Of a stretch of DNA of 64,000 nt, positions 16,761-37,568 are shown piece after piece. Each line of letters opens with the position of its first letter. Within the stretch, counting starts at the first letter, position 1. The translations under genes were made by a program, and so were the position numbers. The DNA comes from Monosporascus cannonballus (taxonomy: Eukaryota > Ascomycota > Sordariomycetes > Xylariales). Under the pieces are notes generated by a model. That model had not been told where the DNA came from, made no database searches, and worked only from the letters and a program-made list of their open reading frames with translations. The stretch spans positions 1 to 64,000 of the forward strand of contig QJNS01000170.1 of NCBI GenBank assembly GCA_004154925.1. The letters are read 5' to 3'.

Positions 16761-18534
16761 TTTTTCGCGACATAAATATTACGTTATTTGAGATATTCGT
16801 AACGAAATTTTCAAATACGTTTATTTTTTATTTCGAAATTTCTAGTATATTATAGGATATTTATTTTGAATTGAAAAGAACAGCTAGGATTCCGAAAATA
16901 TTTTGATTATAGGCCGTAAAGTTATGGAAATTAAGTTTATCAATTTTAATAATATCGTACCTATTATCAACGACTTAACTAAACTTAATTAATTAAATAT
17001 AATAAAGGACGAAAATTAACTTAAAATAATTTTAACGTAATCACCCGAAAAATTCTAAATACTGAATGTGTTAAGAATAATTTGGTTTCGGACAACCGTA
17101 TTATCGTATATACGGGAAAAATTGTAATTTTATAGTACAAATTATCGATAACTTAATTAATAGTTTTAATTAAGGCGGTCCGTTATTATCCTTGTTGTTA
17201 TCAAATAAGTAAAATAAGGATTTATCGGACGAAAACGAAATATTAATATAATTTTTATCTATTTGTTATTTTATATTTTTTTATAAATAATATAACACTT
17301 ATATTATAATTTTAGTATTAATGTACACTTTGTTATTTATATAATTTTAATTAATTAATTTCGGAATCGTTTTATATCTTATTATAATTATTTAATCATT
17401 ATATTAATGTAATTTATTTGCTTTTGGTAATAAAATTACGCATAAAAAATAATATTTTGCGATACGATATACGGCATAATTATTAATAAAATTAACATAA
17501 GTAATTAAATTTATAATTTACGTAATTTTTATTAATTATATCCTATTTGAACGTTTTGTTTTTTGTAAAGGTATATAAAAATATTGCATTATTTATAATT
17601 AAATATGACGTATAATTTTAGGTTAACCCGTATATCCTATTTAGAATTAATTTATTAATCAATATTTTTAAATATTTTTTAAGATTTCTTTTTCCGTTTT
17701 ACCCTTTTTTACGTATTATTATAACTTATGTATTACTAATTGCTTTTATATTTTCGGGTCTTAAGATTTTATTCGTTTTAAGCGTAATATTTGCGTTTTA
17801 ATATTTTTAAAAACTTGGATTCGGATTATATAATAATATTAAATATTTAGGGATCGTATATAAATATTTTTTATTACGTTTTTATACCTAATTTGCATAT
17901 TTATTACTTATATAATTCCGTAAATTATAATATTTATAAAATAATTATATAATATGTATTTTTTAATTAAACGTCCCGGTTTATAAAGTTATAAACTTTT
18001 TTATATTATTTACATAATGCCCGATATATATAATTTTTTCGCTAAATTACAAAAGCTGTAATTAATCGAAAATTCGTAATTAATTTAATAATTTAATAAT
18101 TTATAAGGCCGGTATAATTCGTTATAACGTAAATTTTGTTTTGCCGATTATAATTTTAAAAAATATCTCGAATTATATTATCAATATTTAATGCTTATGT
18201 AAATGCCGTATATTTTCATAATAAAAGATTTTATTCGTAATATAAAGTTTTCGTAATATTATCGAATTTCTAAACTTTCAATAATTATAAGATTTTCTTA
18301 ATTAATATATATTTATATTAATATTAAAATATAAGGTTTTTATTTGTTTGTAATTTGTCGTTATATTAATATATTTTATGGCATATATTTAATATTTAAA
18401 AATAATTACTTATAATATAAATTTTCTGTAAAAAATATTTTATATCTTACGATAATTAAATATTATTTAATTAATACGAAAATATTTTAATCGGGATTTC
18501 GTTATGGGTTTCGCCTTATTATTAATTATTTTAA
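16761..18534. other. AT-rich RIP-degraded DNA, nothing recognised
   Basis: No open frame of note, no LTR and no hairpin that stands out. The composition matches the surrounding RIPed sequence. Confidence 0.5.
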
Positions 18535-18702
18535 TATTAATTCCGGCTATTTTTTAATTAAGGATCTTATTACCTATTTTTAAAATTATTTTTCAAGGAA
18601 AAATTATTTTTATTTTGATATTTATTCCGGTTATTTTTTAATCCGAAATTTTGTTACCTGTTCTTAAAGTTATTTCTCAAAAATAAGTTATTTTTCGGAA
18701 AT
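18535..18702. repeat. Two tandem units of about 84 bp
   Basis: Two successive units share, in order, ATTCCGG(C/T)TATTTTTTAAT, TTACCT(A/G)TT and AAATTATTT(T/C)TCAA, with the ATTCCGG anchors 84 bases apart (18541 and 18625). A third, shorter stretch of TTATTTTTCGGAAATAAG-type repeats follows to about 18,735. Function unknown. Confidence 0.6.
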
Positions 18703-19191
18703 AAGTTATTTTTTAAAAGTAAATTATTTTTCGAAAATATTATTAATAAATTTAATTCCTTTAGCCGGGCGAACAAAATTTTTTAAATTTATTTGAGATA
18801 TATTATCGGGAACTATAACGGAAATTACATTTATTAAATCGGTAAGAAATTTATTTACCTTTTATAATATCGTAAAATATATAAAAAATATATATTATAA
18901 TATGGATTTTCGGTATTAAGTAAAAAAAGATTAATTAATAATTATTATATTATAAATAACATAATTTTAAATATTAAGATATAGTAAATATTTAAAATTG
19001 TAAAAGATTATAATTAAATAAAAAATATTAATTATATATTAAATAATTATTATAATTATATTTAATATATATTTAATTAAAACAATTTTAAACAATATAT
19101 TAAGAAATTTATAATAAAAAATATATTTTATATAATTTATTTATAGTTATTAAGTTCTTTTTGTATATTTTATTATTTCGTTATAAAAAAA

Positions 19192-19222
19192 TAATATTAC
19201 AGCCGTGGTGTTTTGGTGTTTT
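19192..19222 (+). promoter_or_regulatory. Left half of split replication-origin hairpin with iteron-like repeats
   Basis: TAATATTAC at 19192-19200 runs straight into the stem arm CAGCCGTGGTGT (19200-19211). Two perfect tandem copies of GGTGTTTT follow at 19207-19214 and 19215-19222, next to the stem, where geminiviruses carry Rep-binding iterons. In the known families Rep nicks TAATATT/AC; that position here is between 19198 and 19199. The motif is seen; its role is inferred. Confidence 0.75.
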
Positions 19223-19541
19223 ACTAGGGTATGCACCAATCGGATATCTGGGATTCCGGTTTTGTTTTGGTATCCTACTAATGGGAAGCGTAGGATTTTT
19301 TAGCGCTGGTGTCCGTGCATCGGGTATCAGCTTTCCCGGCGTTAGTGGATACGCCAAGGTTCGTATTCAAATTTAGCTTGCTTTTTCGAGTTTGGCCTTT
19401 TTTGGCTTAATCTTAACATATGCGCCAAATTTCGTATTTTTGCGCATTAACACCATTTACTTTATTTACAAATTTTTTTTTCTGTTTATTTAATTCTTTT
19501 TTTTTATCTATTAAATCTTTTTTCCAGCTTTTTTTAATACT

Positions 19542-20600
19542 ATGTTCGGTTATCGTCGTCCTTATCGTCCTTATCGCCGCTATCGCCGCTATCGCCGCTA
19601 TCGCCCTAGGTTTTATTTTAATTGTCGGTACGGTATTATTCGTTATTCTGGATACGTACGTTATTATTAATATTTTCTGGTTAATTTATTTACTTATTTT
19701 CCGCGTTAATATATTATTAATTGCGAGGTTTAGGGTTTTGACTGTATTAAAGGGTTTTTACCTTATTGTCGCCGTATCTCTAAAAGTAATTAATTTATTT
19801 TTTAAAGTTATTTTTTTTTGCGTTTCGTATTCGTAAGTTAAACGGGTAACGTTTTAAAAATTTTATTTTATGGTATTTTTTTTTCGGATTAATTTTACGA
19901 CGATTATTTTTTTTGGCCGTATTGCGATTTTTCTTATTATTATGTTTAAAGGCTTTTTAGGCGGTTATCGCCGGTATTTCGATTATTTGCGCGTATTTTA
20001 TCGATTTGCGCGAGTTATGCGAAAAATTGCTTTTATTAATTATTACGTTAAAAAATTTATAAAATAATTTAATAAGATTTGGTACGTACTTATTATTTAT
20101 ACGGGTGATTCGGATTTTGTTTTTTTGGTTCCTGGTAATAAGGTTTATCGGTCCGATAATCAGATTACGCAAATTGTTATTATTAACGGCGTTCGGTTGG
20201 ATTTCGATATCGTTACGTCGCGTAATTATATTATGCGCGTTTTAGTTATCCGGGCTTATAATAATTTAGGTAATAATATTTTCGTTCTTGGGTTTCCTAA
20301 TTATTAACGTTTACTTAATGTTGCTAGGCGTTTTTTTAATTCTATTAAGGCTATTAATATTTACGCATTTAAGTTTTTATTTGGCGATAATATTTTTTTG
20401 GAACGTATAAAATTTAAAGCCTTTATTTATTAATTTATTCGGCGTAACGTTAAAAAACGTATTTTCGTTAATAAAGTTTATAATAAATATTTTATTTATA
20501 AAGTTAATAATTTGGAAAATTAATTTTTTAATATTTATGTTTAAATATTACGAAAATTAAAATTTAAGAATAACGTTAATAATTTTTTGCGTATTATTAA
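19542..20600 (+). pseudogene. CRESS-virus capsid-protein-like remnant
   Basis: An ATG at 19542 opens a frame whose first codons are an arginine/tyrosine-rich tract (repeated Y-R-R, bases 19551-19607), the usual basic DNA-binding N-terminus of small ssDNA virus capsids. The frame meets a TAA near 19,650. A coherent reading at about 20,110-20,305 carries N-G-V and T-S-R stretches spaced like the central capsid segment of genomoviruses. The first part is also open in another frame as a hydrophobic reading, which I take as a shadow because of the repeated CGCCGCTAT units. It is broken by stops and frameshifts. Position, strand and basic start support a capsid origin; sequence similarity alone is weak. 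Confidence 0.6.
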
Positions 20601-21400
20601 GGATATTTAAATTAATTTTAATATTTATTTCCTTATTATAATTTATATTTCCGTTTTTTATTAAACGTATTTTTCTGTTATCCGATTTACTTTTGATAAA
20701 TATTAATTCCGAGGATAAAAGTAAGTTATTAACGTATAAACGTTTAGGTTCTTAATTTCGGGTTTTTTTTGGCCTAATATTTTATTAAGTAAATAATTAG
20801 GTTAATCGGAGGTTTTTATTGTTATTTTAAATTATATTACGAAATACGCATTATTTATAATAAAATTTGGGAATATTCGAATTATATTTTATTAGAAAAA
20901 GTTAAATATTTAATATTAATAATTATTATCGTTTTTTATATTTTTTAAAAATAAATTTAATACCTTTATTTTATTATTTAATATTTTTATTTTTTTACTT
21001 TTATTAATAAAGGTTTTTATATTTTTATAAAAATGTAATTTCCCTTTATTTATTTTATATTTATTTTTATATATAACCGTAGGTTTTCGTTAATTAAGTA
21101 TATATATAATAACTCCTAATTAGGAAAATGTATTTTTCGTACGTATTTATTCGTAACGGAAAAACTTTGTTAATAACCGAATATTTGTTTGTAATATTTT
21201 AATATTTGTTTATCGTATAAAGGTATATTATTTATTATTATATATTAATTATGTGGAAATAATATAAAAGTAATATTTTATTTTCCTGTTATATAAATAT
21301 AAGGTTTTAATAAATATATTTATATTATTTTGTATATGCGTATTTTTTTCATATAAATATAGCGATTTCGGACGTATTATTTTTCCGTTAACTTTAGAAT
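20601..21400. other. Middle of the virus-like unit, no clear gene
   Basis: AT-rich sequence between the capsid-like and Rep-like readings. It may contain the ends of both genes and the short intergenic region of an ambisense genome, but I see no motif that fixes either stop. Confidence 0.4.
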
Positions 21401-22460
21401 TTACTTAATTTACGTTATTATTTTAGGCCTCCGCCAGGAGGGGCCGTTTGCGGTTATCTTTAGTTATCGTTCCGTTATTAGCGTTCCTGGGAAAATCCTT
21501 TTTCCCCTTTTTCGGTAAGCTTTGGCGAACTTTTGGGAGGGGGGGTATTTAAGGGGGGGTTGGCCCCCAGAAATAGAGAAAAGGTAATTTTTAATTAAAA
21601 TCCTGATTTACGTAAGGGGTTTTTCAAATTTTCTTTAATTTAATCGGAGGCTTTTTCTGATAGGTCCTATATTTCTTCAAATTTAAGTAAAATATATGTT
21701 AATATTAAGGGTTTAAAATGGTCGTTTATATAAGAACGTACGTTGTTATAATTAAATATTAGTTTTTTAAATACGTCCGACTTAAAGCAAAAGATAAATT
21801 TTTTTCGGTTAGTAATTATCGTTATTATTAATCAGAAGTTTTCTTTAATTTTTTTTTTTAAAAATTTCGGTTCCGTTATATCGCCGCCGATATAAATTAA
21901 ACGTTTTTTATTTTTGTGAAAATAACGTTAAGCCGTTAATTTGTTATATATTCTGGTAATATTTGGATAAAAACTTTTAATATGAAAATAACGGGGGTTT
22001 TTTAGGTTTTTTTTTGTGCTTATTTTCCGATTACGTAAAAATATGGTGTACCGTCTTTATGTTTTTTGCGGATTGCGTAATATTGTTAAAAATTAAATTT
22101 GTTAATTCTCGTAATGAATTCTTATGGGTTTAGGTAATATTTCGGGTATGTCAAAAAGATAGATTTCGCCGTTAATTTAAATCGGCCTATGTTATCGGCA
22201 AAAGGGTCTTTTAGAATTAGTTCTGGGGAGCTTTTTCGTATGTTTAGTGTAATCTGTGCGGTACTGGCAATTCCTGTTTCGAGGTCGAAAATGTTATTTA
22301 GTTATTTTTTAAAAGGCCAGCTATTTATAGCCGCTTTTGGTATATTTGGGATAATAAAATCGAAAAGTGATTTTAAGTTATCAGGTATTAATATCTGGGT
22401 TGGTATTGTTATCTGGAATAACTGGTTTGGTAATATGATTTACGATGCTATTTTGTGAAT
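21400..22460 (-). pseudogene. Geminivirus/genomovirus-type Rep (rolling-circle initiator) remnant
   Basis: On the minus strand motif I reads F-L-T-Y-P at 22157-22143. A motif II-like block follows at 22052-22026, 35 codons downstream in the same frame, with the metal-binding His positions now Tyr. A GRS-like segment lies at 22002-21958 in another frame, then motif III Y-F-H-K (YxxK) within 21927-21907. About 120 codons further on, W-G-P-T at 21578-21552 sits where the Walker A of the SF3 helicase is expected, but the following Gly-Lys is not seen and a stop intervenes. Spacing agrees with geminivirus Rep (nickase then helicase). The reading upstream to 22460 may be an N-terminal extension. 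It is broken by stops and at least one frameshift, so not functional. Confidence 0.78.
21430..21580 (+). other. G-run cluster inside the Rep-like region
   Basis: Plus-strand runs GGAGGGG, GGGAGGGGGGG and GGGGGGG (about 21436-21560) stand out in AT-rich surroundings and could form G-quadruplexes. An imperfect inverted repeat GGCCTCC/GGAGGGGCC lies at about 21426-21446. This is the least RIPed part of the unit. Confidence 0.5.
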
Positions 22461-22615
22461 ATGGAATTAATATTTATGCTTATTTTATTATGTAATACGG
22501 GATATTGGATTTTTTGGTATCTTTATGTACTTTATATGTATTTATTATTTGTTAGTTCGTTTTTTTATGTTTGTTTCATATTATGCGTATTGGTTTTTGT
22601 TATTTGGAATAAGGG

Positions 22616-22644
22616 ACACCACGGCTGAAAACTTTTAATATTAT
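22616..22644 (+). promoter_or_regulatory. Right half of split replication-origin hairpin
   Basis: The stem arm ACACCACGGCTG (22616-22627) is followed by AAAACTTT and then TAATATTAT (22636-22644). The arm is the exact reverse complement of 19200-19211. In a closed circle the two arms would pair, with a 16-base loop ending in the nonanucleotide. Confidence 0.78.
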
Positions 22645-24200
22645 AAATAAAATTATTCGATTATTTTAAATTATTGTATACTTAAATTTAATTTCTATAA
22701 TATATTTCGGAATTAAAAAACTTAATAATTTTTTATAACTTTTAATAAATATTTTTAATTTATTATGGTTCGAATTAAATAATTACGAATATTTATAATT
22801 TTCGACTTATTATTAATATAAATAATAGGTTAAATAATAAAATAAAAATTATTATATTAAATTTAAAAAATATTATTTAATAACGTAAATATATTTATTA
22901 TTAAAAAATCTAAATACCTTTAATTCAAACGTTAATTTTTAGATATTAAAAAAATAATATTATTAATTTCGAAACGATTAATATGAAAATATTGGATTTC
23001 CGCTTTATAATTATATTTAATTAAGCCGCCGATTTAAAAAAAACCATTATATTTCATAATTCTTTAATAATATTATTAATAATTATTATATATATAAATT
23101 AATATATATAAGTAGGGAAAATAAGACGCAAAATACGGATATTAATAAATTTAAACCGGAAATGTTTTCATTTTAATAATAAATATATTTCGGCAATAAT
23201 AATCAAATTATATTATTATTCGAAAATAAAATTTAATATAATAAATTTAAATTAATTATTCAATATTTATTTAAAATGAAAAATAATATAGTTATATTAT
23301 TTGGTAATTATAAAATCAAATATTTTTAAATTACGTTTTTTTTTATTTGCGGATATTAAAATAAAAATAAAATATAAAATATAAAATATAAAAACTTGAT
23401 ATTTTTTTAACTTAATTAATAATATAATTTAAATAATAATTAAAGTAATTATTTACGAAAAAAACTTAAATAATTAAAAGTTTTTTAAAATTTATTTTAA
23501 CAATGAAAAAAATATTAAACTTTTCGAAAATTAAATTATATACTGTATCGATTTATATTTTCCATAAAATATATCCTTATTTATTAAATATAACGCTTAA
23601 TACAAAGCAAATAAATTAACGGCGTAAAATTTTTATAATCTTATTAGCCGTATATATAATATTAATATATAAGTTAATTATTTTTATTTCGGCAAAAAAC
23701 CGGCAAAAATATTAAACAGAGATAAATACTTTATTTTGGAAAATTAAATATTTGAAAATTAAAAGTATTTATTTTAAAATTTTAAATATATTACCCGTAT
23801 TTGGCTAATTAAAAATATTTATTTCGGAGCTTATTACGGGGGATTTTAAACTTTTTGTATTATTATTTTAATTTATAAGATTATATTATTATCGTATTAG
23901 CTTAAATAGGATAAAAACTTATAATATATATTAATCGGGATTTTGGGCCATTTTTTTATTATAATAATTTTTATTTCGTATTAATCAAAATTATTATTAT
24001 AGTAAAAAATAAAAATTTTAATTTTGCAATAAATTATATAAATTAAAATATTAAGAATTTCGTAATTAATATATATTACCAAAGTTAATATTAATAATTT
24101 TTATAAATTTGTATAAAAGCGTATTAAACGGAACGAAAAAATCATAATATGTTATTAGGCCTTATTTTGGAGATTTTATTATTTTTGTAAGTATTATTCT
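22645..24200. other. AT-rich RIP-degraded DNA up to the island edge
   Basis: No recognisable motif; stops in all frames. Composition changes abruptly to normal GC at about 24,200-24,230. Confidence 0.6.
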
Positions 24201-24371
24201 TAAAGGAATTTAGCTGATATATTGGACCCCTGACAGATACTTCTTGATCAAAAGCTATGTCACGGCGCTGTACGTCTCTTGGGTTTCTGGAAGATATTCT
24301 GTTGTTGCACGAGGAAGAAAGAAGAGAGCTATCTAGTAAGCCCGTGGCGCTTACATATATATAGCGAAACG

Positions 24372-24389
24372 GCGGCTTAAATAAGCCGC
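24372..24389. other. Perfect 8-bp-stem inverted repeat at the left island edge
   Basis: GCGGCTTA, a two-base AA spacer, then TAAGCCGC form a perfect hairpin. A second stem, GTGGCT...AGCCAC, lies at about 24418-24451. They lie within the first 250 bases of normal-GC DNA and could be part of an old LTR or small element; GGACCCC (about 24223) and its complement GGGGTCC (about 24464) also bracket this stretch. Confidence 0.5.
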
Positions 24390-24482
24390 TTTGCTAGTGC
24401 CGTAACAAGCTATAGCTGTGGCTACGGCTGCTGTGCCGCAGGCGCAGCCACAACCTCCAAAATGGGGTCCTGATCAAGATGG

Positions 24483-24674
24483 GGTAACCCTGAATGGCAT
24501 AATACTTTTACAATCAAATCCCTGGATCCCAGCATAGAGCCTGCCAATCTTAAACCAGGGGACAAGCTGGACGTTGATATTAAAGGCTACCCCTTTAAGT
24601 TTCAATTCCAGCCAACAATTGTATTAAGTACGCTTGCATCAACATTATCTGACAAATTGGTTAACAGCTGTTAG
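24483..24674 (+). pseudogene. Unidentified 64-residue coding remnant
   Basis: An uninterrupted reading with protein-like composition ending in TAG: after N-P-E-W-H-N-T-F comes E-P-A-N-L-K-P-G-D-K-L-D-V-D and further polar/hydrophobic alternation. It has no ATG of its own and a stop just upstream, so it is a fragment or an exon. I do not recognise the family, and chance is possible at this length. Confidence 0.25.
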
Positions 24675-26043
24675 GAAAACTCTCCAAACTCTTTCCAATG
24701 GTATGGTGTGAGATTTATGACCTGATAGTGTCCCGCCGTAGTGTGGGGCCTCACATTTTTCGGCACTTTAGGATCTGACAGGAACCAACTAGAATAGTTT
24801 GTGCCGGATATGGCACCGTAACGCGAGATCCCTGTGCCAGTTGTAGTAGCACAACACAGGAATTCTTGGTTCGAATCTATATCTGATATATGGTTTAAAA
24901 GGGAAGGAGTAACAGGCCACTAACTGTCAAAAGATTGGATCGAATGCCCGTTAAATTCATGCTAAGTGATCAGTCCGAAGGGTTGTGAACTGCACCACTT
25001 TATATGCAGAGTTGTAGATCGCCTTAGTTACCCCTATTCTACCCCTGTTTCAGCACTGAGTAGAAGGCTCTCTGCAACTCTCAGCCGAACCCTCAATGGA
25101 CTTTTGCAAGTAGACTCGCGAAAGCCACCTTGGGCCGCAGGTGCCGCTCTAACGCTATTGTCTCCTCTTCTGCGGCGTCTGAAAAGAACCGCCATGCGCT
25201 GACACTATAATTAGTGCAATTAGAATCGTATGACTAATCCAGTTATGGCACCGGTAGCCAAGATACTTCACCGGAATGTGCTTGGAAATATGGACGTAGG
25301 TGGGGAGGTGCAACTGTAGAGGGCGTGGGCTCAACAGCAGCGTAGGTAGGATTATAGGCGGTACTCGTTAGGAACACGGTACTAATACTGCCGCTTGATG
25401 TGGTGTCGTGGTAAGAATTGACCATATATGACGCTATTGCTAGCCACGCATTAGCGGCGTCGTTTTCGCGACATGTGGGCATCTCAATAATTTCTTGACG
25501 ATATATAGAAAAGTGAACATTCGCATCAAAGACGGCGGAGCCCTCTTCGAAGGTGCTTAGAGAGCCCCTTGTCCATTCCTACGAGCCAAAGATAGCTCGA
25601 CACGTTATGACACTCTCTGTGGTCTCGGATCCGCGTTGTGAAAGCCGTATAGAAAAGGCAACATTTCGAATGGCATATGTGCAAGATCTTCTACGGGTAC
25701 AGGAACTGTAGCCTACTTAGTTGAAGAGACATAGGGACATGGTTTCCTGGTGTCACTTCAGTTTATGTCGCCTTGAGGGTTCACCTCAGAGTGGATAGGG
25801 CTGTTGCCGCAGTCTCCCGTCCAGCCGAAAGGAGGGAAGATTAATAAAGTCAATAGCAATGCTCAGCGTACCGTACACAACCAAGGAGAATGCGGTTCGT
25901 CATACGGAATCGGCGGTGCGCTGGAGCAAAAAGAGATAGTGTGTGTATTAAGGAGGAATGTTCCAGTGTCGTAGAAAAGGGGCCCCCTTGACGGCTCCAG
26001 GGATCATCCGGGACAAGGTTATTTCTCTTCTGGAGCCCTGGAT
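24675..26043. other. Normal-GC intergenic DNA, no supported gene
   Basis: Several frames of 70-90 codons occur on both strands, but none has protein-like composition, splice-site support or a recognisable motif. Confidence 0.5.
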
Positions 26044-26388
26044 CCCTATATCACTGGATCTCCGCACCACAGATGGGATCAGCGTCCTCAGGCTACCTAG
26101 ATATCATCGATATAGCCTCTCAAGAGCTGTGCAGCTGCCCCCTAGTAAGTGTGACATACAGCATACAACCGCAGCTAGAGGGAATGCTAGGAAAGACGAA
26201 TGCCATTGCCCAAGCATCAAAACGGGAGGCTAACAACTTAACCGCCTGGGTTAGAGCTGTTTGTCAACACATACGCCATGTCACACTTACTAAGGATCAG
26301 ATGCACAGCTCTTGAGGTTATATTGACTTGTCTCTAGGAAGCTCGAAACCGGTGATCCCAGTGGTGGTGGTGATCCACTGATATAGGG
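26044..26388. repeat. Long imperfect inverted repeat (two arms of about 112 bp)
   Basis: The left arm 26044-26157 and right arm 26278-26388 are reverse complements at roughly three quarters of positions. Best blocks are CCCTATATCA(C/G)TGGATC, CAAGAGCTGTGCA and TAGTAAGTGTGACAT. The spacer is 120 bp. No coding frame is convincing. It could be a decayed inverted-repeat transposon or a transcribed hairpin giving small RNAs. No target duplication was seen. Confidence 0.75.
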
Positions 26389-27321
26389 CTATTGGGCTCC
26401 GTTATTGGTGCCCAACAGCAGGGGGGTGCTCTTTTCTGTGACACGCCAGATACGTCGGACAGTCTATCAAGAGTAAGCGATGCCGGCCGACGAAGGACAA
26501 ATAAGACTTTTGGGCCGCCAACCCCTCCCATGATGATTATTCTATTGTCATAAGGTCCCTTGGCCTCCAATCATATGTGGGCGCTGGAAGTTAAAAGTTG
26601 TCTGCATGCTCAACGTCGCCGGGGTTATCAACATGAAGTCTCTTCCACTCCGCCGGCGCGGCTAGTAGGCCGGACAAGTTTCCATTGGTTGTTCTGGCGC
26701 TTCGTCAATGACAGGTGGTATTGAGACGCCAGGGCTGAACGTGTAGAAAGTTTGTCTGTAGGAGTGGCAGGGGTTCGTCCAGGCAGATACTATCAACTTG
26801 CTGTAAAGTGCGCCGGGTGGTTTTGCCTAAGTTTGGATATTCAAGGGAAGACATAAAGAGCGCTGGCAGAGAAACAGCACCCGAAGAAACTACGCAGCAA
26901 AGGCGCGATTTATTGCCTCGTTAGATCTTACCAGTCTTCTCCACGAGTATTAATATTCTCTAGCTATTATAAAGCAACAGATATCATACGTGTCACTGTG
27001 GGAACCGCGGTATTGGATATGCCACAGTCGAGACTCTGGTAAGTGGCATTGCTTCAACTCGACTTCCCTCCGTTTTCCTGTGGTTGCTCATGAGGACATC
27101 CTCAGCACTCAGTGACTCCCATCATTCCCGCCTACTCCTCAACCGCTGGCCTCAGGATGCCTTTGACTTTCAGAGCTCCAGTGCTTCCTTCGTCCATTCT
27201 TGGCATCTCCTCAGAGGCCCGCAAGGGTATAAACACCGAGGTCCATTATATTGCTTTTTGGGGACAGGAACCTCGCAGCAGATTTGCTCATCACGATCAA
27301 AATCAGCGACCAGGATCTTAC
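26389..27321. other. Normal-GC DNA, no supported gene
   Basis: Overlapping short frames lie on both strands around 26,334-26,570 and 27,084-27,321. Those near 26,400 only reflect GGT/CCA triplet runs. Nothing is recognisable. Confidence 0.5.
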
Positions 27322-27477
27322 CTTAAGCTCTTTGCCGAGAATCATGTCATCATCTCGGGCAGGCCGAAACTCGTAGGCCGTTCCTGATTGAATATTTCCG
27401 TTGACTTCGTAAACGCACTCACTAGCTGGCTTCCGGTTGGCCTTGGTATGGAGTTCTATCGTATTTTCTCTATAAAT
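27322..27477 (-). pseudogene. Possible exon of an unidentified gene
   Basis: A 52-codon minus-strand reading with protein-like composition (central segment V-Y-E-V-N-G-N-I-Q-S-G-T-A-Y-E-F) ends exactly at a GTAAGA donor-like site (27321-27316). Beyond it another frame reads I-L-V-A-D-F-D-R-D-E-Q with good composition to about 27,170, so there is either an intron or a frameshift. No start codon or family was recognised. Probably a decayed gene. Confidence 0.3.
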
Positions 27478-28318
27478 TGAGGAAAAGCTAATAGAGCGCT
27501 AGGACCGTACAAGGTTAAGTGTTGTCAATCTCCCCAGATCCCCAGGCTCGCTTAAAAAGCCTTTAACTGAGGGTGGCTTATGGCGTGTCGTCATGACCCA
27601 AAAATAAGACCATGCGAAGGGAAGAACAGGGGACTCTTGAATTAGTCTATAGTAGCATTTCCTTAATTTATCGAGTTAATACGGTATTGGTCCTTTTCAA
27701 ACTGTTGTCGGGTCGATCAGAATTGAGTGGTAGCCTTGCGCATCTATATCAAAGAGAGATCGCGAGGTATAGCTTTTAATACATGGTGCTTAGATGCCGT
27801 AACGTCAAATAGTTTAATCTTAGATGCCCGCAGCCTTTCTCGAGTTAGCCGGTAGTTACACTAGATTGTAGGGACCTAGTAATTTATATCAGCTCCGAAG
27901 TCGGCAAGCAGTTAAAGGGCTCTGTATGACTTACGCCTAGGCGCCTTGCTTTATCGAACAGACCCATTGTTCCAGATCCGCGTCTTTCAAGCCATGCTGT
28001 GTCTCATTAAGAATTGACGTACCAGAGACATCCAGCGTCCTGAATTACATCATCAAGGAGCGTATAAACGGCACGTTATGGGCGTACTGTGGCAGTCCAG
28101 AGGACGAAAGGAAATCCGCGGTCTCTCTACAGCTGAAGCACAGTTCCAATAGCTCCGCGATTTCTCTGATAAGGGCTACTGCGGCAGGCTCGGCCGGCGA
28201 TTCTTTGGCGACTTCATGTTCTGGGGCGGCCACGAAGAGCCCAAGTTCGTGATCTGTGAGATCTTTGAAACGGGTGATCGATCAGTTTAACGATGCTGTC
28301 GTTGACAGATGTCTGTAG
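27478..28318. other. Normal-GC DNA with a short orphan reading
   Basis: A plus-strand reading of about 44 codons at 28,150-28,289 has coding-like composition (G-D-F-M-F-W-G-G-H-E-E-P) but stops before the kinase-like fragment and is in another frame. It may be a further piece of that decayed gene or of an unrelated one. The rest shows nothing. Confidence 0.35.
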
Positions 28319-28621
28319 GAGGGCCGGGCCACCAAGAAGGCCGGGCATACCGTGCTTGCCGCTGTCATGCATAGCCTTAGACCTGCCTTCGTGCACGCAG
28401 ACATGCACAGGGAGAATGTGCTCACTCTCGGGGACGGGGGTCTGCGGATCGTCGACTGGGAGGCCGCCGCGTGGCATCTGGCCTACTGGGAGTACTTCAT
28501 GGCACCGGCGTCTTTTGGGCCCTGGGAGGATCGTTGGCTGGCTCTTATTGGCATGTTTCTTGATACGTATATAAACGAGTGCGGGTGGATGGACAAGATA
28601 CGCCAGGACTTGTGGTCCTAG
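28319..28621 (+). pseudogene. APH/choline-kinase-fold phosphotransferase fragment
   Basis: The reading after the stop at 28316-28318 contains H-A-D-M-H-R-E-N-V-L and I-V-D-W-E-A-A, the catalytic loop (H-x-D-x-x-x-x-N) and the metal-binding D-W-E of the aminoglycoside phosphotransferase/choline kinase superfamily (PF01636). The tail L-A-Y-W-E-Y-F is also typical. Only this C-terminal half is present, about 100 residues against the 250-350 usual for the family. No N-lobe with ATP-binding motifs lies in frame upstream. In filamentous fungi this family is large and mostly of unknown substrate. It could be the last exon of a gene with undetected introns, but the stop just upstream and the lack of an N-lobe favour a truncated pseudogene. 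A solo LTR lies 100 bp downstream. Confidence 0.6.
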
Positions 28622-28724
28622 ACGACTCACTATAAGCCAAGATGTAGAAGATGCCAACAATCGATCAACACTCCCCAGATGGGCTACCGACCAGCCTTTC
28701 GAAGGAGCTAGTTACATACACATT

Positions 28725-28912
28725 TGTGACAGTTAGGCTGATCGGTAGATAAGGTAACATAGAGTGTGGGAAGTGATAATTGTCTGACTAGAATTGAGCT
28801 CTAGGGAGCGGTGGCAAGGAAGCTCTCTATATACTGTGGGCGCGCCGGAATAAGGTTCTCCCGGTGTGCTGGGAGCTTGATGACTAACATAGATACCCCT
28901 ATTCCACGACAA
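28725..28912 (-). repeat. Undamaged solo LTR of the left copia family
   Basis: Full-length match to the RIPed LTR at 6328-6513. ACATT flanks it at 28720-28724 and 28913-28917, a probable 5-bp target duplication, though the right border would then be one base past the CA end. No internal copia sequence is present, so it is a solo LTR left by recombination. On the minus strand a TATATAGAGAG promoter-like core follows a GC-rich palindromic part. Confidence 0.75.
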
Positions 28913-30668
28913 ACATTAAAAAGTGATATCCATATAATAGAATCAGACAAAGCCGTAAATTGTCGCACATGTATCACACATTATATCTATCGTATCTTGG
29001 ATATGCATTCGCCATATTCCGTATTGCCTTCGAGCTCACAACGGAGAGGGGCGTTGAAAACGAGGCTGAACAGTATAACGAACCCAACTCCCACCCCTCT
29101 CCCTACCAAAAAGTAGTACGGGATCTTTGCTACATGTATATATTGAAAGTTGGAGCTCTCCTCCCTGATGAACCTACGCAGCCCGCCTAGTTCGGGATTC
29201 AAAGTATATATCTCCCTGGAAACCCATGGAATCTGTAGATATTGCTGAGCAGGATCGTCGCGGACAGCATGGAGAGGTCTTGTCTAAGTAGCACCTATAA
29301 CATCGGTGAACTGAACCGAAACTCTTTAGCGAAGGATTGTGTCCACACACAATATGCCATAGGTAGCCGCATGACACACTGCCAATCTCTGCGACGACGT
29401 TGTGCGGAATGTCAGGTGTGCCACCTCCCAAAAGCGTCTATAGTGCAGGGCCCGGAGTCCAGTCGACATTCTCCTATAAGGAGTTCCACTGCGGCATATT
29501 CTATCCCGGGGGTGTCAAAAAAGTCAGTGTACGGTTGACCCTAGTCTTCCATAATCTTACCGGTGAAACTGGCCCCAGAAGATGGGCTGTTAGCGATAGC
29601 AGGGGTGAGTATTGTAGCCTGATTGCGCTGTCGGGGTTCACTTACGGCTGTAGTGGCTGTTTTGATGGTGATCACACGAGTCAAGAAAGGGGGGTGGAAG
29701 TTTCTGGAGACAGTATAGCGTCATTTCACCTGTTGGTCACTGACCCCTGATTGTCAGAAGCCCCCTTATTAGCGTGTGGCCTGAACCCCATGGTTAATCA
29801 AGACCTGTATGCCCCGGGACCATTCATGTCGATATATTGCCCGCTATTATACATATCTCAATGGCGGCCGATGGATGTCAACACATTCCAGGGTAATGGA
29901 TGAACGGCATCGCGCTTTGTTGGCGTCTGGTGGCATCACAGTCACTGCCGCGTAAAGGGACCATGACGCCCTGGATGGACCATAGAGGCGGGACCAGCGG
30001 GCTCCTTCATATCATGGTCGTCTAGGTCTATCGACTCTGAAGGGGGAAAACTATTGTTAGAACTCCGTCGCGGTCTAGCCCTAAGCCGGAAACCTCTACG
30101 GAGAATCGTCGTATCATCACCAGCAGCAATATTCTGGCTGTAACACCCGTCAGGCAACGGACTGGCATAGTTTTATCGCAGGCGCTAGCTATGCACATAA
30201 ACTATAAAATATTCCTAGATGAGGGATATGACAGACTCCCGTACACATGGTGTCCCATACCGCGGTTAACATCACGAGTGGAGGCAGCTGGATCACGTCA
30301 AACTTGAATCGAACAAGTCTAAAAGAACAGAGTCGAATTTGGACTCGCTGCTATTGGGAGGACAGATTCGGCCTTCTTTGACTCTTGGGGGACAACTCCC
30401 AGCAAGTTCCCTGAAAAGAGTAGTACTCCGAGGGCCCGCCTGGAAGGAACCAAGCCACTGGTGTGTATCCGTATCCAGAACACAATTGAGATCGCCGCTG
30501 CGCCGCGTAATTCTTCATACGTATCTGGGATGGACTAAAGAATATCGACTCATCTTCAATGATTGGTTACAGCTCTTGCTATGCTTGATTGTTGTGACCC
30601 ATCTCTATATGTACAGTTTGAGTTTCTGCCCATGCCAAACACTCGTGCCGCCGCCAATCCGACCAGAT
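28913..30668. other. Normal-GC intergenic DNA, no supported gene
   Basis: Several frames of 70-116 codons (for example around 28,960-29,190 and 29,400-29,750) lack recognisable motifs and contradict one another on the two strands. I would not call any of them. Confidence 0.5.
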
Positions 30669-31024
30669 CTAGTGCTTCGTCTTCTCGTCCTTGTCCGCCT
30701 CCTTCAAAAAGTTCCTGCAACCGTTAGTATCGAGTGGAGTCTAGGGAATGTGGACTGGGTTGCGCACTGGATGAAGTCGGCCTCGTCGGAGCTGGATGCG
30801 TTGATCGGAGGGGCCTGAGTAGCGGGCCTCTTCTTACCACCGCCGATGGCCAGGTAGGAGCCAGCAAACAGAGTACTGAGAACACCGATTGCGAGCTGGA
30901 GGGGAGTTAGCGCAAGAAGCAATGTTTTCTATTGAGGCCAGTTCGTCGCCCTCGGCTAAACTGAAGTGAGACTTACATAGTGAGAGCCGACCTGGCGGCC
31001 GAAAACAGTGTACATCTGGACCAT
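30669..31024 (-). CDS. ATP19: ATP synthase subunit k, mitochondrial (three exons)
   Basis: Small inner-membrane subunit of the F1Fo ATP synthase Fo sector; in yeast it is linked to dimerisation of the complex. Exons (minus strand): 31024-30977, 30895-30768, 30714-30669. Introns are 81 bp (GTAAGT...CAG) and 53 bp (GTGCGC...TACTAAC...TTGCAG). Frames join exactly and give 73 residues, the family's usual size. Exon 1 ends G-R-Q-V-G-S-H-Y; exon 2 gives one membrane helix (L-A-I-G-V-L-S-T-L-F-A-G-S-Y-L) and the signature P-P-I-N-A-S-S-S-D-E-A-D-F-I; exon 3 is a charged tail ending K-T-K-H. A second ATG three codons in is an alternative start. The second donor, GTGCGC, is atypical. A 159-codon plus-strand frame overlapping exons 2 and 3 is spurious. 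Confidence 0.9.
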
Positions 31025-31713
31025 CTTGACGGCAGTGATCGAATTGACCTCGAGCGATACTCCTGGTAGGTGTCTCTGAGGAAGGGGAAGTCGTAGCTCT
31101 AAAAGGTCGACTGTTTGGCTGGCGGCTTCGAAGTTGTCAAAATACTCCTCAAAGCTCCGTCCCGAGAATTGACAGAAGGCTTCCAAATACGTACTAGCGT
31201 GGGTAGTTCGCCCAGCCACAGACGCCCGTAGATTACATAATCACAATCTCTCCGAAGATTTTCCATCATGTATGGAGTACTTACACGAAGTACTTCGCAC
31301 AGTGGTGACTCTAGGTTTTGCAGGGGGGCAGCATGTATTGATCGCCACAGTATGTACCTGTCCGGTTGTTGCCGGTCAACCCAATTCAGTGGAGGAGCCG
31401 GGACTGGGGCCAACTGCCAAGCTAGGCTCCGCCACTCCGGAGCCCCAACAAGCGAATCCCCGTTCAGTTTTCGGAGGGCAGTGTCGACGTCATTCTGATA
31501 ATGATAATAAAGCTATCACAAATCAGCTTCCCTTCCGGTACCTTCGTGGGGTCGCGACATATTTTCTGCCGAAGAAGTTAGCGCTAAGATCTCGCTCCAA
31601 CTTTCCTCCCGTTTGCGGCATTCATTCTACTCCTATACCGTTTGATCCTCGACGTTCTATTCGGCCGAGCTTTTAGTGTGCTTCCCAGCAAATCCAAATA
31701 ATAGCCATCCACG
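31025..31713. promoter_or_regulatory. Shared upstream region of ATP19 and MTP18
   Basis: A 689-bp divergent intergenic region between two nuclear genes for mitochondrial proteins, which suggests coordinated control. Frames of 87-134 codons on both strands have no recognisable motif. A 5'-UTR intron cannot be excluded. No specific factor site was identified with confidence. Confidence 0.5.
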
Positions 31714-32706
31714 ATGTTCTGGGATAGGCGATCACCAAAGAAACCGGAAGTCTCTAAAGATAACGGCCCCGAAGCCTCTCCGGCTGCCGCAACCCAAGCA
31801 GATCTGCGGAAAGATGCGACCGACTTCGATCTCGACAGACTCCCGGAACGGCGAAAGCTGCCCAAAGGCCTTCAGAAGATCGTCGAGAACTCAGACAAGG
31901 ATGAAAACTTCTTCGACGAGCTTGTAGAGGGCTAGTATGTGGTTCGCCCAATTTACCACCCACAAGCGCCGTTTGCGTAATACACGCGGATCCTTAACAA
32001 CCACGGGCTAATATTGTGCTTTCTCAGCGCCCCTGCATCCACCGAGTCGAACGTTCGATATGCCGCCTATGCAAACAGACTCCGTACCATCATGCTCTCG
32101 GCCCACCGCTATGTCGCATATACATCCGATATAGGGGAGTCTTTCCGCCCTGTTGCCCACCCCTGGCTCGTTCGTGGCGCATATGGAGTATCATGGGCCT
32201 ACATCCTCGGCGACGTCTCGTACGAGGGATATAAAGCCTACTGGCAGAATCAACGGAAGCTGAACCCCCAGCTGGTCCTGACCGAAAAGCAGCAGAAGGT
32301 TACCGGTCTCTCCGCACCGATGCCCGCAGACGCCAAGCCCGGCGTTCTCGCTCCCTTAGAAGACTACAGGACTGTCATGGTCCAGAGAGCGATCTTCCAG
32401 AGCATCGCGTCGATGGGGTTGCCCGCGTTTACGATTCACAGCGTCGTCAGATACTCCGGAAGGGCATTCAAGGACGCGAAGAACAAGATTATCAGGACAT
32501 GGGCCCCTATTGGTCTGGGTCTCGCTATTGTGCCATTCTTGCCTACGCTCTTCGACCACCCAGTCGAGAACGCCGTCGAATGGGCTTTCCACAAGGGCTT
32601 CGAATTGTATGGTGGCAAGGCGTTTGTCGGCGATACCCCGGCCACGGGACGCGAAGCGGCATTACACCAGAAACCCAAAACTGTGCCGAAGGAGAAAGAG
32701 CTGTAA
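31714..32706 (+). CDS. MTP18: Mitochondrial fission process protein 1 homologue (two exons)
   Basis: MTP18/MTFP1 family inner mitochondrial membrane protein; the animal homologue promotes mitochondrial fission and inner-membrane remodelling. Exon 1 is 31714-31934 and exon 2 32028-32706. The 93-bp intron starts GTATGT and ends CTCAG, with a GCTAAT branch-like site about 15 bases before the acceptor. The joined frame is 299 residues, normal for fungi. Residues 1-73 are a charged leader; the family domain follows, with Y-T-S-D-I-G-E-S-F-R-P near residue 105, W-A-Y-I-L-G-D-V-S-Y-E-G-Y-K near 135, and the C-terminal hydrophobic block W-A-P-I-G-L-G-L-A-I-V-P-F-L-P followed by D-H-P-V-E. The start ATG gives M-F-W-D-R-R. 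The gene converges on the AN1 gene. Confidence 0.92.
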
Positions 32707-32999
32707 AACGAAGGGGGGAAAAAGTTGTAGTAAATGGATTTTGACGGCAGTGGTACATGGAAATCTCCGCTGTTGTATTACCTAAACCGTTCAAATGGCA
32801 TTTAAATAGATATGTATGGACCAGATGTATATGTAGCATCATCGCTGGCTGTATCGGGCGCTTGGTTGTCGCTGCTTGAGGTATCTCTACTCTGGAATAC
32901 AAATACGTCACAACGCCGTCTTATGCAAAATCGCTCGTCATATCTCGTGATATTCTTCCGACGGAAAACCCCAACCCCCCCACCCCAAAAACAAAAACT
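32707..32999. other. Convergent intergenic region
   Basis: The 293 bp between the 3' ends of MTP18 and the AN1 zinc-finger gene. Bases 32967-32996 are C/A-rich (CCCCCCACCCC, then AAAACAAAAA). It must contain both 3' UTRs. No gene. Confidence 0.6.
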
Positions 33000-33956
33000 C
33001 TACATCTCGATCAAGTCAGGCCGCGGCCCGACCCCGCGCAGCAGGACGACCGTATTGCCGCTCGTCAGCGCGGCGCCGATCTTCTCGTTGAACTCCAGCA
33101 GCCGGCCGCCCTCGACGTGGAAGACGCGTAGCCGGTCCCGCTCGTCGGCGGACTGGTTGTTGATGTTCTCGACCTGCAGGCTGCGCGCGGCGGCGTCGAG
33201 CAGCCGGCCCACGACCCAGTCCTTCGAGTAGAAGAACTCGCCCCGCGGGTACTTGGCCGTCGTCGTCTCCGCCTCCGCCTCGACGTACAGGTACACGCGC
33301 TTCTCGGGCGGCAGCTTCGTATCGCCCTTGGCCGTCTTCTTCAGGTTGTTGACGGCGACGAGCCGTGCGCTCGCGCTCGTCGGCTTCGGCTTCGGTAGCG
33401 CCCGCGTCGTCAGCGTCTGCGCCTGCTCCCGCTTCGCGGAGCCCCAGGCCCTGAGCTTAGCGAGCGCCGAGCGCGCGCTCGACCCCGCCGCCGCCGCCCC
33501 CGCCGAGGGGCGCGCCCCGATCGGCGTCTTGCTCGCGCAGTCGTGCTCCTCGCGCAGCCGGTGCTTGAGGCAGTAGTCGCGGTTGCAGGTCGCGCAGTGC
33601 ACGCCCGGCACGAGCGACGTGCCGATCACGGTCCGGCAGTCGTCGGCGGCGCACGGCTTCTGTGTCGCGAGGTCGCGGTCCCGCAGGCGCCGGCCCTCGC
33701 CCGCCGAGGGGCGCGCCAGCTGCGCCTGCCGCCGGCGCTCGGCCCACGCGCCGCGGTTCGCGCACTGGTGCGCGTCCTCGGTCCGGTGGTCCAGGCAGAA
33801 TGTCTTCTTGCAGCTCTGGCAGAAAAAAGGTAGAAAGTCTAGCTGGTTGCAGTACTCGAGCTGGCAGTGCTTGCCCACCAGCGTCGGGTCGTTCTCTTTG
33901 TCCATCTTCACGTAGCTCGTGTCGGAGGGGTCCGGAGTTGTCGACGTTGACGCCAT
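33000..33956 (-). CDS. AN1-type zinc-finger protein (Cuz1/ZFAND-like)
   Basis: Proteins of this type (yeast Cuz1, human ZFAND1) bind Cdc48/p97 and the proteasome and act in arsenite and proteotoxic stress. From the ATG at 33956 (context AACCATGGCG, a good initiation site) the protein is 318 residues. An in-frame ATG at 34079 would add 41 residues with no conserved content. Two AN1 fingers are visible: residues 31-65 (C-Q-L-E-Y-C ... C-Q-S-C ... C-L-D-H ... H-Q-C) and 102-140 (C-A-A-D-D-C ... C-A-T-C ... C-L-K-H ... H-D-C). An Arg/Ala-rich linker follows, then a C-terminal ubiquitin-like region (Y-L-Y-V-E ... G-R-L-L-D ... L-R-V-F). It lacks introns and is very GC-rich. It is divergent from RAD4. 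Confidence 0.88.
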   Translation of the reverse strand: MASTSTTPDPSDTSYVKMDKENDPTLVGKHCQLEYCNQLDFLPFFCQSCKKTFCLDHRTEDAHQCANRGAWAERRRQAQLARPSAGEGRRLRDRDLATQKPCAADDCRTVIGTSLVPGVHCATCNRDYCLKHRLREEHDCASKTPIGARPSAGAAAAGSSARSALAKLRAWGSAKREQAQTLTTRALPKPKPTSASARLVAVNNLKKTAKGDTKLPPEKRVYLYVEAEAETTTAKYPRGEFFYSKDWVVGRLLDAAARSLQVENINNQSADERDRLRVFHVEGGRLLEFNEKIGAALTSGNTVVLLRGVGPRPDLIEM

Positions 33957-34499
33957 GGTTGCGGTCGGTCGATCGAATGGATCGAGCTCGCTTTTGTAGT
34001 CGTTCCTCGCAGGGAAAGGCTTTGCCTGAGAGTAGGCAGGCGGGGAATTCGTAAGCAGCGCTCGCGGAAGGATAACCACATCCGTAAGGAGAGGCGAGGC
34101 TGATGTTGGCTGAGGCTATCTAGAATGGTCTGGAAGGATTGGTCAGTCTCGAAGGGGCCGAGGCGAGCTAAAGGTACGTACCGTTAACCTTATCCGGCAC
34201 GTCGGTATCCGCGCGGAGCGGAATCTCCGGGTAGATGCGGGGCACGTTATGTAAGCCATAGCTAGCTTACTGAGGAGAGGGCGAGGCCGGACCTACTAGC
34301 TTAATTGAATGTGGGGCCCGGTCAGCTGCTTTCGTGTTTCCGATGACGCAGGCGCCCCTGCCTTTCATCGAGTGGCTAAATCCGGGTCATCGCGCTATCC
34401 GAGATCTGCACGAGTCCATGTCTGTCTGTTCCTTTACGTTGACTTGACAAACTCCAGTCTGAGATCAAATCGCACGAGATGTGATATGCTGCCCGAAAA
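33957..34499. promoter_or_regulatory. Divergent promoter region between the AN1 gene and RAD4
   Basis: 543 bp separates the two start codons. No frame here is convincing. No specific regulatory motif was recognised. Confidence 0.5.
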
Positions 34500-37400: not shown

Positions 37401-37568
37401 ACGGAGGAGTCCACCCGGCCGGTCCTGAAGAACCCGAAGAAAGCGGCAGCGAAACCGAAGGCCAGACATAAACAGACCAGTACCCGGAGGCGCACGCGCA
37501 GGAAGCGGGTCCCGGACTCGGAAGAAGATGACGATGATGACGATTTTGGACTCTCGGATAGCGATTAA
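34500..37568 (+). CDS. RAD4: DNA repair protein Rad4 (XPC homologue)
   Basis: Nuclear damage sensor of global-genome nucleotide excision repair; with Rad23 it binds helix-distorting lesions and recruits TFIIH. The single uninterrupted frame is 1022 residues, slightly longer than most fungal Rad4. The start gives M-P-P-Y-V-P-R-K, typical of fungal Rad4. An acidic disordered N-terminus runs to about residue 150. The transglutaminase-like domain spans about 160-520 (T-H-C-M-H-V-Q-F-L-L-W-H-N near 163; F-P-H-Y-W-T-E-V near 469). Beta-hairpin domain 1 starts near 625 (Y-V-L-K-R-H-L-K), domain 2 near 668 (V-Y-L-R-K-D-V-V) and domain 3 near 722-815 (P-E-G-A-V-H-V-P-Y-R-G). A coiled, Lys/Arg/Glu-rich segment and a long acidic tail ending in a poly-Asp stretch complete it. 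It shows no RIP damage. Confidence 0.95.
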   Translation: MPPYVPRKHLRTPSPTDSKPVAKKPRSTKEGDAIPVANVPARKSTLFDDLDAGAKNRSAEKTKSAIQQMQDDDDESSSLSPLSDAEFEDVPAPKRQKVSHVSETDEDDSDDIEFEDVPSHDHQPDPMPSGDLELTLYQDKRASLANELGKKGPSKREKAIRIATHCMHVQFLLWHNAIRNSWLCDEEVQAIMISHLPPRLWGEVDRWKRSSGLDSSDRQLQNATKAGTSAREKGKGKQAASRPAKDWSDAADRLERGVPDMSHGDPLLRLMKCLLSWWKQRFRITAPGLRRWGYMDARRLGKLRESFDEGEHDPERHGERIKNIEGFRRHAQDCAGSRDVGSQLFTALLRGLRLEARMVANLQPLGFGWCKAEEAGEDVSKADKPDGGDKSSKSAAKQLNGKSTGTKKARVRPASRRRRKSDRDSLKMELDDSDEYAEPLTEDSDDDSVIDLTEEIRPKQPEAKPYDKDLEFPHYWTEVLSPVTKRWIPVDPIVKTVVASNRDLIESLEPRGGKAEKAKQVMAYCIGFSQDGTAKDVTVRYLKKQIYPGKTKGVRISEEKVPVYNKHGKVKRYDQFGWFRSVMRGYVRGGRKWPITETDEAEDSTDLKPAKPEKKEVKEGEETLQYYKTSKEYVLKRHLKREEALVSGAVPVKVFRNKSKGSKVEEENVYLRKDVVAVKSAETWHKQGRAPLPGVVPLKHAPYRAATTNRRREIAEAEAATGQKVLQPLYSFDQTDWIIPEPIKDGVIPKNEYGNIDMFAEHMCPEGAVHVPYRGVARVCRRLGVDYAEAVVGFEFGHRMAVPVIQGVVVAEENHARVLEELERDEAERARKEDEKRRRAALAMWRKLLMGLRIADRIRQDYGHLDNSVEVFGHAGRDEKEGGFEETTRKGGEEEDMAGGFLPEGDEEEEEDAGAGTRHTSSFFPATHDDEGGDGAHHLFEIRDGSERPDEAEAGFGGAPAAAPSSQTEESTRPVLKNPKKAAAKPKARHKQTSTRRRTRRKRVPDSEEDDDDDDFGLSDSD

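What the first reader, a model, noticed from the sequence alone, without database searches (positions are those of the whole stretch)
19192..22643. Unit-length integrated circular ssDNA virus-like genome, opened exactly at its replication origin
TAATATTA lies at both ends, and TAATATTAC, the geminivirus nick-site nonanucleotide, at the left. Two perfectly complementary 12-base arms sit just inside and would form the origin stem-loop if the ends were joined. The gap from nick to nick is 3444 bases. An ambisense layout (capsid-like rightward, Rep-like leftward) lies between. Seen directly: termini, arms, motifs and order. Known: geminiviruses and fungus-infecting genomoviruses share this plan, and Rep nicks TAATATT/AC. 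Inferred: a circular replicon was linearised at the nick and inserted whole, which Rep itself could have mediated. Integrated copies are usually Rep fragments; a full unit with both origin half-sites is unusual.
Basis: partly seen in the sequence, partly recalled or inferred. Interest (0 to 1): 0.95.

Follow-up and report, generated by a model that had tools for sequence, protein, structure and literature searches.

The report
Geminivirus-like element transposing through its origin
A fungal genome holds dozens of decayed copies and fragments of a small two-gene element whose ends lie at the geminivirus replication nick site TAATATT/AC and which, where empty sites could be compared, sits in host copies of that same site, so its own nicking enzyme (Rep) likely pasted it in, using a virus-type replication origin as a transposon end.

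Summary
In detail: TAATATT/AC at 19192-19200, TAATATT/A at 22636-22643, perfect 12-base arms, 3444 bases nick to nick. It is not one stray virus. The host (88.8 Mb, Monosporascus-like) carries a RIP-decayed family: 28 left and 27 right ends were read at the same border, and 16 of 21 copies examined are unit length (3.43-3.56 kb). Empty copies of two host repeats (10 read of each) carry one TAATATTAC-type site where filled copies have two, with no host base lost at four filled sites; different subfamilies hit the same base. The window copy instead replaces about 3.8-4.0 kb of a third repeat. The leftward gene is Rep-like: three motif-I pieces match only Rep chains in the PDB (11 rows, each weak, E 0.012-0.72); four other pieces do not. 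The rightward gene shows protein-level constraint but no capsid match. No transposase or recombinase turned up among the pieces scanned. Best reading: a CRESS-type replicon that repeatedly integrated, likely by Rep-mediated strand joining into host TAATATTAC. The published truffle 'geminivirus-like transposon' differs: it carries transposase ORFs.

The parts
19192..19198 (+). TAATATT, left of the nick; host-supplied in the preferred model
   Evidence: 21 of 28 left ends exact, flank columns outside it not conserved
19199..22642 (+). nick-to-nick element unit, 3444 bases
   Evidence: 16 of 21 copies examined are 3433-3560 bases border to border
19200..19211 (+). left stem arm CAGCCGTGGTGT
   Evidence: 12 of 12 complementary in the window copy; at least 9 of 12 in 17 of 19 copies
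22616..22627 (+). right stem arm ACACCACGGCTG
22636..22642 (+). TAATATT, element-supplied, preceded by the near-constant AAAACTTT
   Evidence: 25 of 27 right ends exact
19207..19219 (+). two GGTGT words (19207-19211, 19215-19219) with an inverted ACACC at 22616-22620; iteron-like (resemblance recalled, untested)
   Evidence: seen
19542..20755 (+). rightward gene remnant with Arg/Tyr-rich start (MFGYRRPYRPYRRYRRYRRYRPRFYF); capsid-like only by that start
   Evidence: third-position transversions 59/65/175 in the body; no family match
22122..22301 (-). open Rep piece with motif I (GRFKLTAKSIFLTYPKY; FLTYP at 22143-22157)
   Evidence: only PDB match at E<=10 is a Rep chain, 1l2m (E 0.72)
21913..21924 (-). 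motif III-like YFHK (YxxK)
   Evidence: read in the sequence; not matched by a tool
21249..21404 (-). open piece with RPKSLYLY, possibly remains of the helicase P-loop context (resemblance recalled)
   Evidence: Pfam and PDB gave no match
18800..19198 (+). left flank: host repeat T3
   Evidence: 39 other copies listed, most matching up to the border; 19 read
22643..22950 (+). right flank: later part of the same repeat T3, normally 3759-3956 bases downstream of the left flank
   Evidence: 11 uninterrupted T3 copies found by pairing the two lists

Best explanation
This is one RIP-decayed copy of a multicopy fungal element that begins and ends at a geminivirus-type nick site and was likely inserted by its own Rep, which would cut TAATATT/AC both in the element's circular origin and in a matching host TAATATTAC and join the two. 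Shown: identical borders in many copies, a single nonamer at empty sites and two at filled sites, no host bases lost at four such sites, a leftward gene with a geminivirus-type Rep motif I, and a rightward gene kept under protein-level constraint. Inferred: the leftward gene's catalytic activity, the circular intermediate, the Rep-tyrosine joining step, and that the window copy's missing 3.8-4.0 kb of host repeat was lost between two nick-like sites during or after insertion. Unresolved: whether new copies came from an episomal or infecting virus-like replicon or from chromosomal copies, and whether the rightward protein is a capsid.
For: 37 of 40 left-end matches in the genome start within 4 bases of the query start and 27 of 27 right-end matches reach the border. 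In 28 of those 37 left ends (9 were not fetched) and 27 right ends the nonamer positions are conserved and the flanks are not: position 8 is A in 55 of 55, position 9 is C or T in 55 of 55 (C 41, T 14). 16 left/right pairs lie 3432-3565 bases apart, 9 further pairs 5-24 kb. Empty sites: repeat T1 reads TAATATTA[CT] in 8 of 10 copies read and T2 in 5 of 10; filled C289, C91, C245 (T1) and C30 (T2) equal those sites split at TAATATT/A. T1 is hit by subfamilies 3.3-3.5% apart in transversions (L058/L061 and L064), T2 by L060 and the distant L072 (8.8%). Rep motif-I pieces from three copies match only Rep chains in the PDB: 5 of 5, 1 of 1 and 5 of 5 rows; Gemini_AL1 is the family hit by most pieces, 3 of 10, below its cut-off. 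Informative transversion columns by codon position: rightward gene 10/10/36 and 14/8/23, Rep motif III region 6/7/16, non-coding left end 9/6/8 (chi-square p 6e-6, 0.02, 0.04, 0.74, rows share ancestry). The nonamer lies on the strand of the rightward gene, as in geminiviruses (recalled).
Against: Rep evidence is individually weak: Pfam scores are below cut-off and two unrelated families scored as well or better in E-value (0.022, 0.024 against 0.026); whole-genome searches with PF00799 and PF08283 found nothing, with silent controls; motif III, central and helicase pieces had no Rep match in the PDB. In 18 other measured copies no long open Rep frame remains. Capsid searches all failed. The basic start of the rightward gene showed no third-position bias (13/25/20). 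The window copy is not a clean insertion, and its right border in uninterrupted T3 copies is only nonamer-like (two read). A nine-base target duplication by another enzyme would leave the same letters; the excess of deviant left (host) nonamers over right ones is not significant (7 of 28 against 2 of 27, p 0.14; pairs 4:0, p 0.06).
Confidence: 0.72

Rival explanations
1. A conventional terminal-inverted-repeat transposon whose DDE transposase prefers TAATATTAC and duplicates nine bases.
For: Filled sites carry TAATATTAC on both sides and empty sites one, as a nine-base duplication would; 12-base inverted repeats exist.
Against: The right repeat is 8 bases (AAAACTTT) away from the duplicated word, the left one adjoins it. 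No transposase family in the pieces scanned. The arms plus loop form a geminivirus-type origin when the ends face each other.
Confidence: 0.07
2. A Crypton-like element moved by a tyrosine recombinase that crosses over between a circular form and a short identical host site.
For: One shared core word at empty sites, two at filled sites, inverted arms around it in the circle.
Against: No recombinase match in the pieces scanned; the spacer between arms would be 16 bases; the leftward gene resembles Rep.
Confidence: 0.05
3. Passive capture: nicked or broken virus circles were joined by host repair, by microhomology at TAATATT.
For: Seven-base homology is shared; the window copy is linked to a host deletion of about 3.8-4.0 kb, which repair events often give.
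Against: Borders are base-exact in nearly all ends read, and four filled sites lost no base; passive capture should give ragged ends and partial units often.
Confidence: 0.1

Closest known systems
Geminivirus-like transposon of Tuber melanosporum (Liu et al. 2011, PMC3198968; passages read)
   Same: Repeated geminivirus-Rep-bearing element in an ascomycete; 42 Rep genes or remnants there.
   Different: That element has two transposase ORFs and 37-bp terminal inverted repeats, no obvious target duplication; the passages do not describe nonanucleotide borders. Here: 12-base arms, nick-site borders, TAATATTAC targets, no transposase found.
Geminiviridae and Genomoviridae (origin, Rep, ambisense plan)
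   Same: TAATATTAC in a stem-loop if the ends are joined, ambisense genes around it, Rep motif I.
   Different: Integrated, multicopy, site-specific; 3.43-3.56 kb (genomoviruses are about 2.2 kb, e.g. 2090-2188 nt in PMC12656945, abstract only); capsid and helicase unconfirmed.
Endogenous geminiviral sequences of plants (GRD, EGV; PMC5014472 and PMC7758297, passages read)
   Same: Integrated geminivirus-like DNA, some with origin-like sequence.
   Different: In the passages seen these are tandem or partial integrations ascribed mostly to passive recombination; no nick-site target was described.
HUH transposons: Helitrons, Replitrons, IS91; integrated bacterial pCRESS plasmids (PMC10741241 and PMC6668415, passages read)
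   Same: HUH or Rep enzyme with mobility; pCRESS are site-specifically integrated between direct repeats.
   Different: Helitrons and Replitrons have other termini; pCRESS lack structural genes and are bacterial.

Membership tests
Geminivirus/genomovirus-type CRESS replicon | TAATATTAC nonamer between complementary stem arms at the origin | tested here: met
   (ends compared, not joined)
Geminivirus/genomovirus-type CRESS replicon | HUH Rep with motifs I, II, III | tested here: inconclusive
   motif I matched; motif II region degraded; motif III-like YxxK seen but unmatched
Geminivirus/genomovirus-type CRESS replicon | SF3 helicase domain in Rep | tested here: inconclusive
   no match; RPKSLYLY piece resembles it by eye only
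Geminivirus/genomovirus-type CRESS replicon | jelly-roll capsid protein on the virion strand | tested here: inconclusive
   gene under constraint but no match; model pLDDT 46
Geminivirus/genomovirus-type CRESS replicon | free circular ssDNA form | not testable with these tools
   needs DNA from the fungus
HUH transposon in the broad sense | HUH enzyme acting at the element's termini and at the target | not testable with these tools
   borders and targets fit; enzyme action inferred
Helitron | 5' TC and 3' CTRR ends, insertion between A and T (recalled) | tested here: not met
   ends read AC... and ...TAATATT, inserted in TAATATT/AC
TIR DDE transposon | inverted repeats adjoining the target duplication on both sides, DDE transposase | tested here: not met
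   right repeat 8 bases off; no transposase match in the pieces scanned
Crypton | tyrosine recombinase gene | tested here: inconclusive
   no match in the pieces scanned; genes are decayed

The most novel reading that the evidence does not exclude
A self-mobile eukaryotic element class in which a geminivirus-type origin is the transposon end, Rep is the transposase and the host nonanucleotide TAATATTAC is the target, so that virus replication and chromosomal transposition are one reaction.
Probability: 0.6. Interest if true: 0.92.

Novelty: new variant of a known kind. Interest (0 to 1): 0.82.

Why it matters
Whether CRESS-virus Reps integrate their own genomes, and whether such viruses turn into transposons, has rested on Rep phylogenies and on elements with other transposases. 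Here many copies, exact nick-site borders and empty target sites in one genome give direct structural evidence for origin-to-target joining in a eukaryote and make the question testable in living fungi. The second gene stayed under protein-level constraint while the family multiplied, which hints that a virus-like, not merely transposon, life was kept.

Tried and rejected
Single viral integration: rejected, the family is multicopy. Concatemers: by eye, 0 of 27 right ends is followed directly by a left end (both lists capped or best-candidate lists). Segmental duplication as sole source of copies: rejected for T1 and T2, where different element subfamilies sit at the same base, though conversion between resident copies is not excluded. 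Profile search for Rep in the whole genome: silent, controls silent too. Related loci in IMG/VR: 186, 170 and 21 pattern matches, none confirmed. Structure models of two natural open pieces were poor (pLDDT 52.9 and 46.0), so no fold search was run. Rfam on 18000-24000: no match. L071 was dropped from the unit-length count because its left border was mis-anchored (arms 3 of 12); L074 and L075 lack an end; L069 and L070 carry extra sequence.

Full report
Observation. The letters are as described: TAATATT/AC at 19192-19200, TAATATT/A at 22636-22643, 12-base arms at 19200-19211 and 22616-22627, 3444 bases nick to nick. In such AT-rich DNA the nonamer alone means little (10 in the window, 5.58 expected); the case rests on other copies.

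A family, not one provirus. In the host genome (G000, 88.8 Mb, 618 contigs) the first 249 bases match 40 places, 37 of them starting within 4 bases of the query start, and the last 251 bases match 27 places, all reaching the border. I read 28 of the 37 left junctions (9 were not fetched) and all 27 right ones. Left ends read unique flank + TAATATT + A[CT]AGCC-type arm; right ends read GGCTG-type arm + AAAACTTT-like spacer + TAATATT + A[CT] + unique flank. Exact TAATATT: 21 of 28 left, 25 of 27 right. Position 8 is A in 55 of 55; position 9 is C (41) or T (14). Columns outside are not conserved. By script, 25 left and right ends pair on one contig and strand; 16 pairs are 3432-3565 bases apart and 9 are 5-24 kb apart, presumably by later insertions. 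Of 21 copies examined in full (20 fetched, plus the window), 16 are 3433-3560 bases; two lack an end, two carry inserts, one was mis-anchored. The arms pair at 9 or more of 12 positions in 17 of 19 copies, 12 of 12 in four.

Host and decay. One neighbouring gene product (MTP18, 32014-32703) is 95% identical to a Monosporascus protein, so the host is Monosporascus-like (Xylariales); this rests on one protein. Rad4 and ZFAND1-type genes lie in the GC-normal island. The element shows the RIP-like signature: CpA observed/expected 0.33, (CpA+TpG)/(ApC+GpT) 0.57 against 1.12 in the gene island; all 18 other copies measured have GC 0.20-0.31 and indices of 0.52-0.69. None of the measured copies shows a long open Rep frame.

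Empty sites. The left flanks of C289, C91 and C245 belong to one high-copy host repeat (T1; 40 matches scored of 2397 candidates), those of C30, C216 and C20 to another (T2; 40 of 3193). I read 10 of the 39 other copies of each. They run through without an insert; the site reads TAATATTA[CT] in 8 of 10 T1 and 5 of 10 T2 copies, the others being close variants. Filled C289, C91, C245 and C30 equal such a site split at TAATATT/A with nothing lost; C20 fits but is diverged, and C216 has about 25 extra bases on the right. T1 was hit by subfamilies that differ by 3.3-3.5% transversions, and T2 by L060 and the distant L072 (8.8%), so the same base was probably hit more than once. The C207 copy has a T1 left flank and a T2 right flank, both ending at the nick.

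The window copy. Its left flank is repeat T3; 5 of 19 T3 copies read show TAATATT at the border and most others TAACGTT. Its right flank is a later part of T3: in 11 uninterrupted copies, found by pairing 39 left and 39 right matches, the two flanks lie 3759-3956 bases apart. In the two right borders read, the site is only nonamer-like (TAATAATAT and CGATAATAC). So this copy replaces that stretch. Either two cuts were bridged by the element, or an ordinary insertion was followed by deletion between two TAATATT words; I cannot tell which.

Genes. The leftward frame carries GRFKLTAKSIFLTYPKY (22122-22301, minus). Against all PDB sequences, this piece and two motif-I pieces from other copies match only chains named Rep or replication-associated protein: 1 of 1 row (E 0.72), 5 of 5 (best 0.11), 5 of 5 (best 0.012). 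The chains are geminivirus Reps by recall (TYLCV for 1l2m, wheat dwarf virus for the others). Pfam gives Gemini_AL1 for 3 of 10 pieces (best E 0.026) and Gemini_AL1_M for 1 of 11 (0.061), below cut-offs and beside unrelated hits of like E-value. Pieces with the YxxK-like motif, the central part and a possible helicase P-loop had no Rep match. In L056, L057, L058, L065 and L066 motif I and the YxxK stretch share a frame; in the window copy they do not.

The rightward gene starts with an Arg/Tyr-rich run. No family, structure or sequence match was found. Yet transversions, which RIP does not make, sit at third codon positions: 59/65/175, 88/41/153 and 83/69/172 in three stretches, 60/42/118 in the Rep motif III region, against 69/55/56 at the non-coding left end; counting informative columns once gives 10/10/36, 14/8/23, 6/7/16 and 9/6/8. 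The short basic start itself gave 13/25/20 and the putative helicase stretch 10/10/4, no support there. Copies share ancestry, so the p values are a guide only. A scan along the element shows the bias from about base 720 to 2280 in L064 and again in the Rep region.

Mechanism. A geminivirus Rep cuts TAATATT/AC in the origin loop, stays bound to the 5' end and can join it to another 3' end (recalled). If the second 3' end is a host TAATATT, the product is host-TAATATT/AC-element-TAATATT/AC-host: exactly what is seen, including the AAAACTTT spacer that belongs to the loop. A nine-base duplication by another enzyme would give the same letters but leaves the off-set inverted repeats and the Rep gene unexplained. 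The model predicts that the left word comes from the host; left words deviate more often than right ones (7 of 28 against 2 of 27; pairs 4:0) but not significantly.

Comparison with print. Searches of open PMC text listed no paper that, from title and abstract, describes this; most subscription papers and preprints are not held. Liu et al. 2011 (PMC3198968, passages) report a truffle geminivirus-like transposon with two transposase ORFs and 37-bp inverted repeats, a different architecture, and speculate that integrated Reps could catalyse their own excision and invasion. Plant endogenous geminivirus papers (PMC5014472, PMC7758297; passages), a review section on Replitrons (PMC10741241; the original paper was not read) and the pCRESS plasmid paper (PMC6668415, passages) describe related but different things.

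Verdict. A CRESS-type replicon family that used its origin as an integration site in a fungus; Rep action is inferred, capsid unproven.

Noticed in passing
L067 (C207:25369-28928): Left flank is host repeat T1 and right flank host repeat T2, both ending exactly at the nick: recombination between copies or two-target joining.
   Followed up: partly
L053/L032 (C163:29745-30274): A left end and a right end lie about 70 bases apart in opposite orientation, a miniature or rearranged copy.
   Followed up: no
L035 (C90:117893): Right flank is GC-richer (GGCCTGGTCACCCG...) although the left flank is T2; an insertion near a gene or a rearrangement.
   Followed up: no
L047 (C608:411587): A diverged left end with another arm sequence (CACCCCGGGGTAT) after the same TAATATTA; no right end found in the fetched stretch.
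   Followed up: no
window 18663-18738: 18-base tandem repeats (AAATAAGTTATTTTTCGG-like) in the left flank repeat.
   Followed up: no
window 24000-40000: GC-normal gene island with Rad4, an AN1/ZFAND1-type zinc-finger protein and MTP18, between AT-rich RIP-like blocks.
   Followed up: partly
window 21427-21560: GC-rich stretch inside the element at a place where element subfamilies do not align with each other (alignment depth drops).
   Followed up: partly
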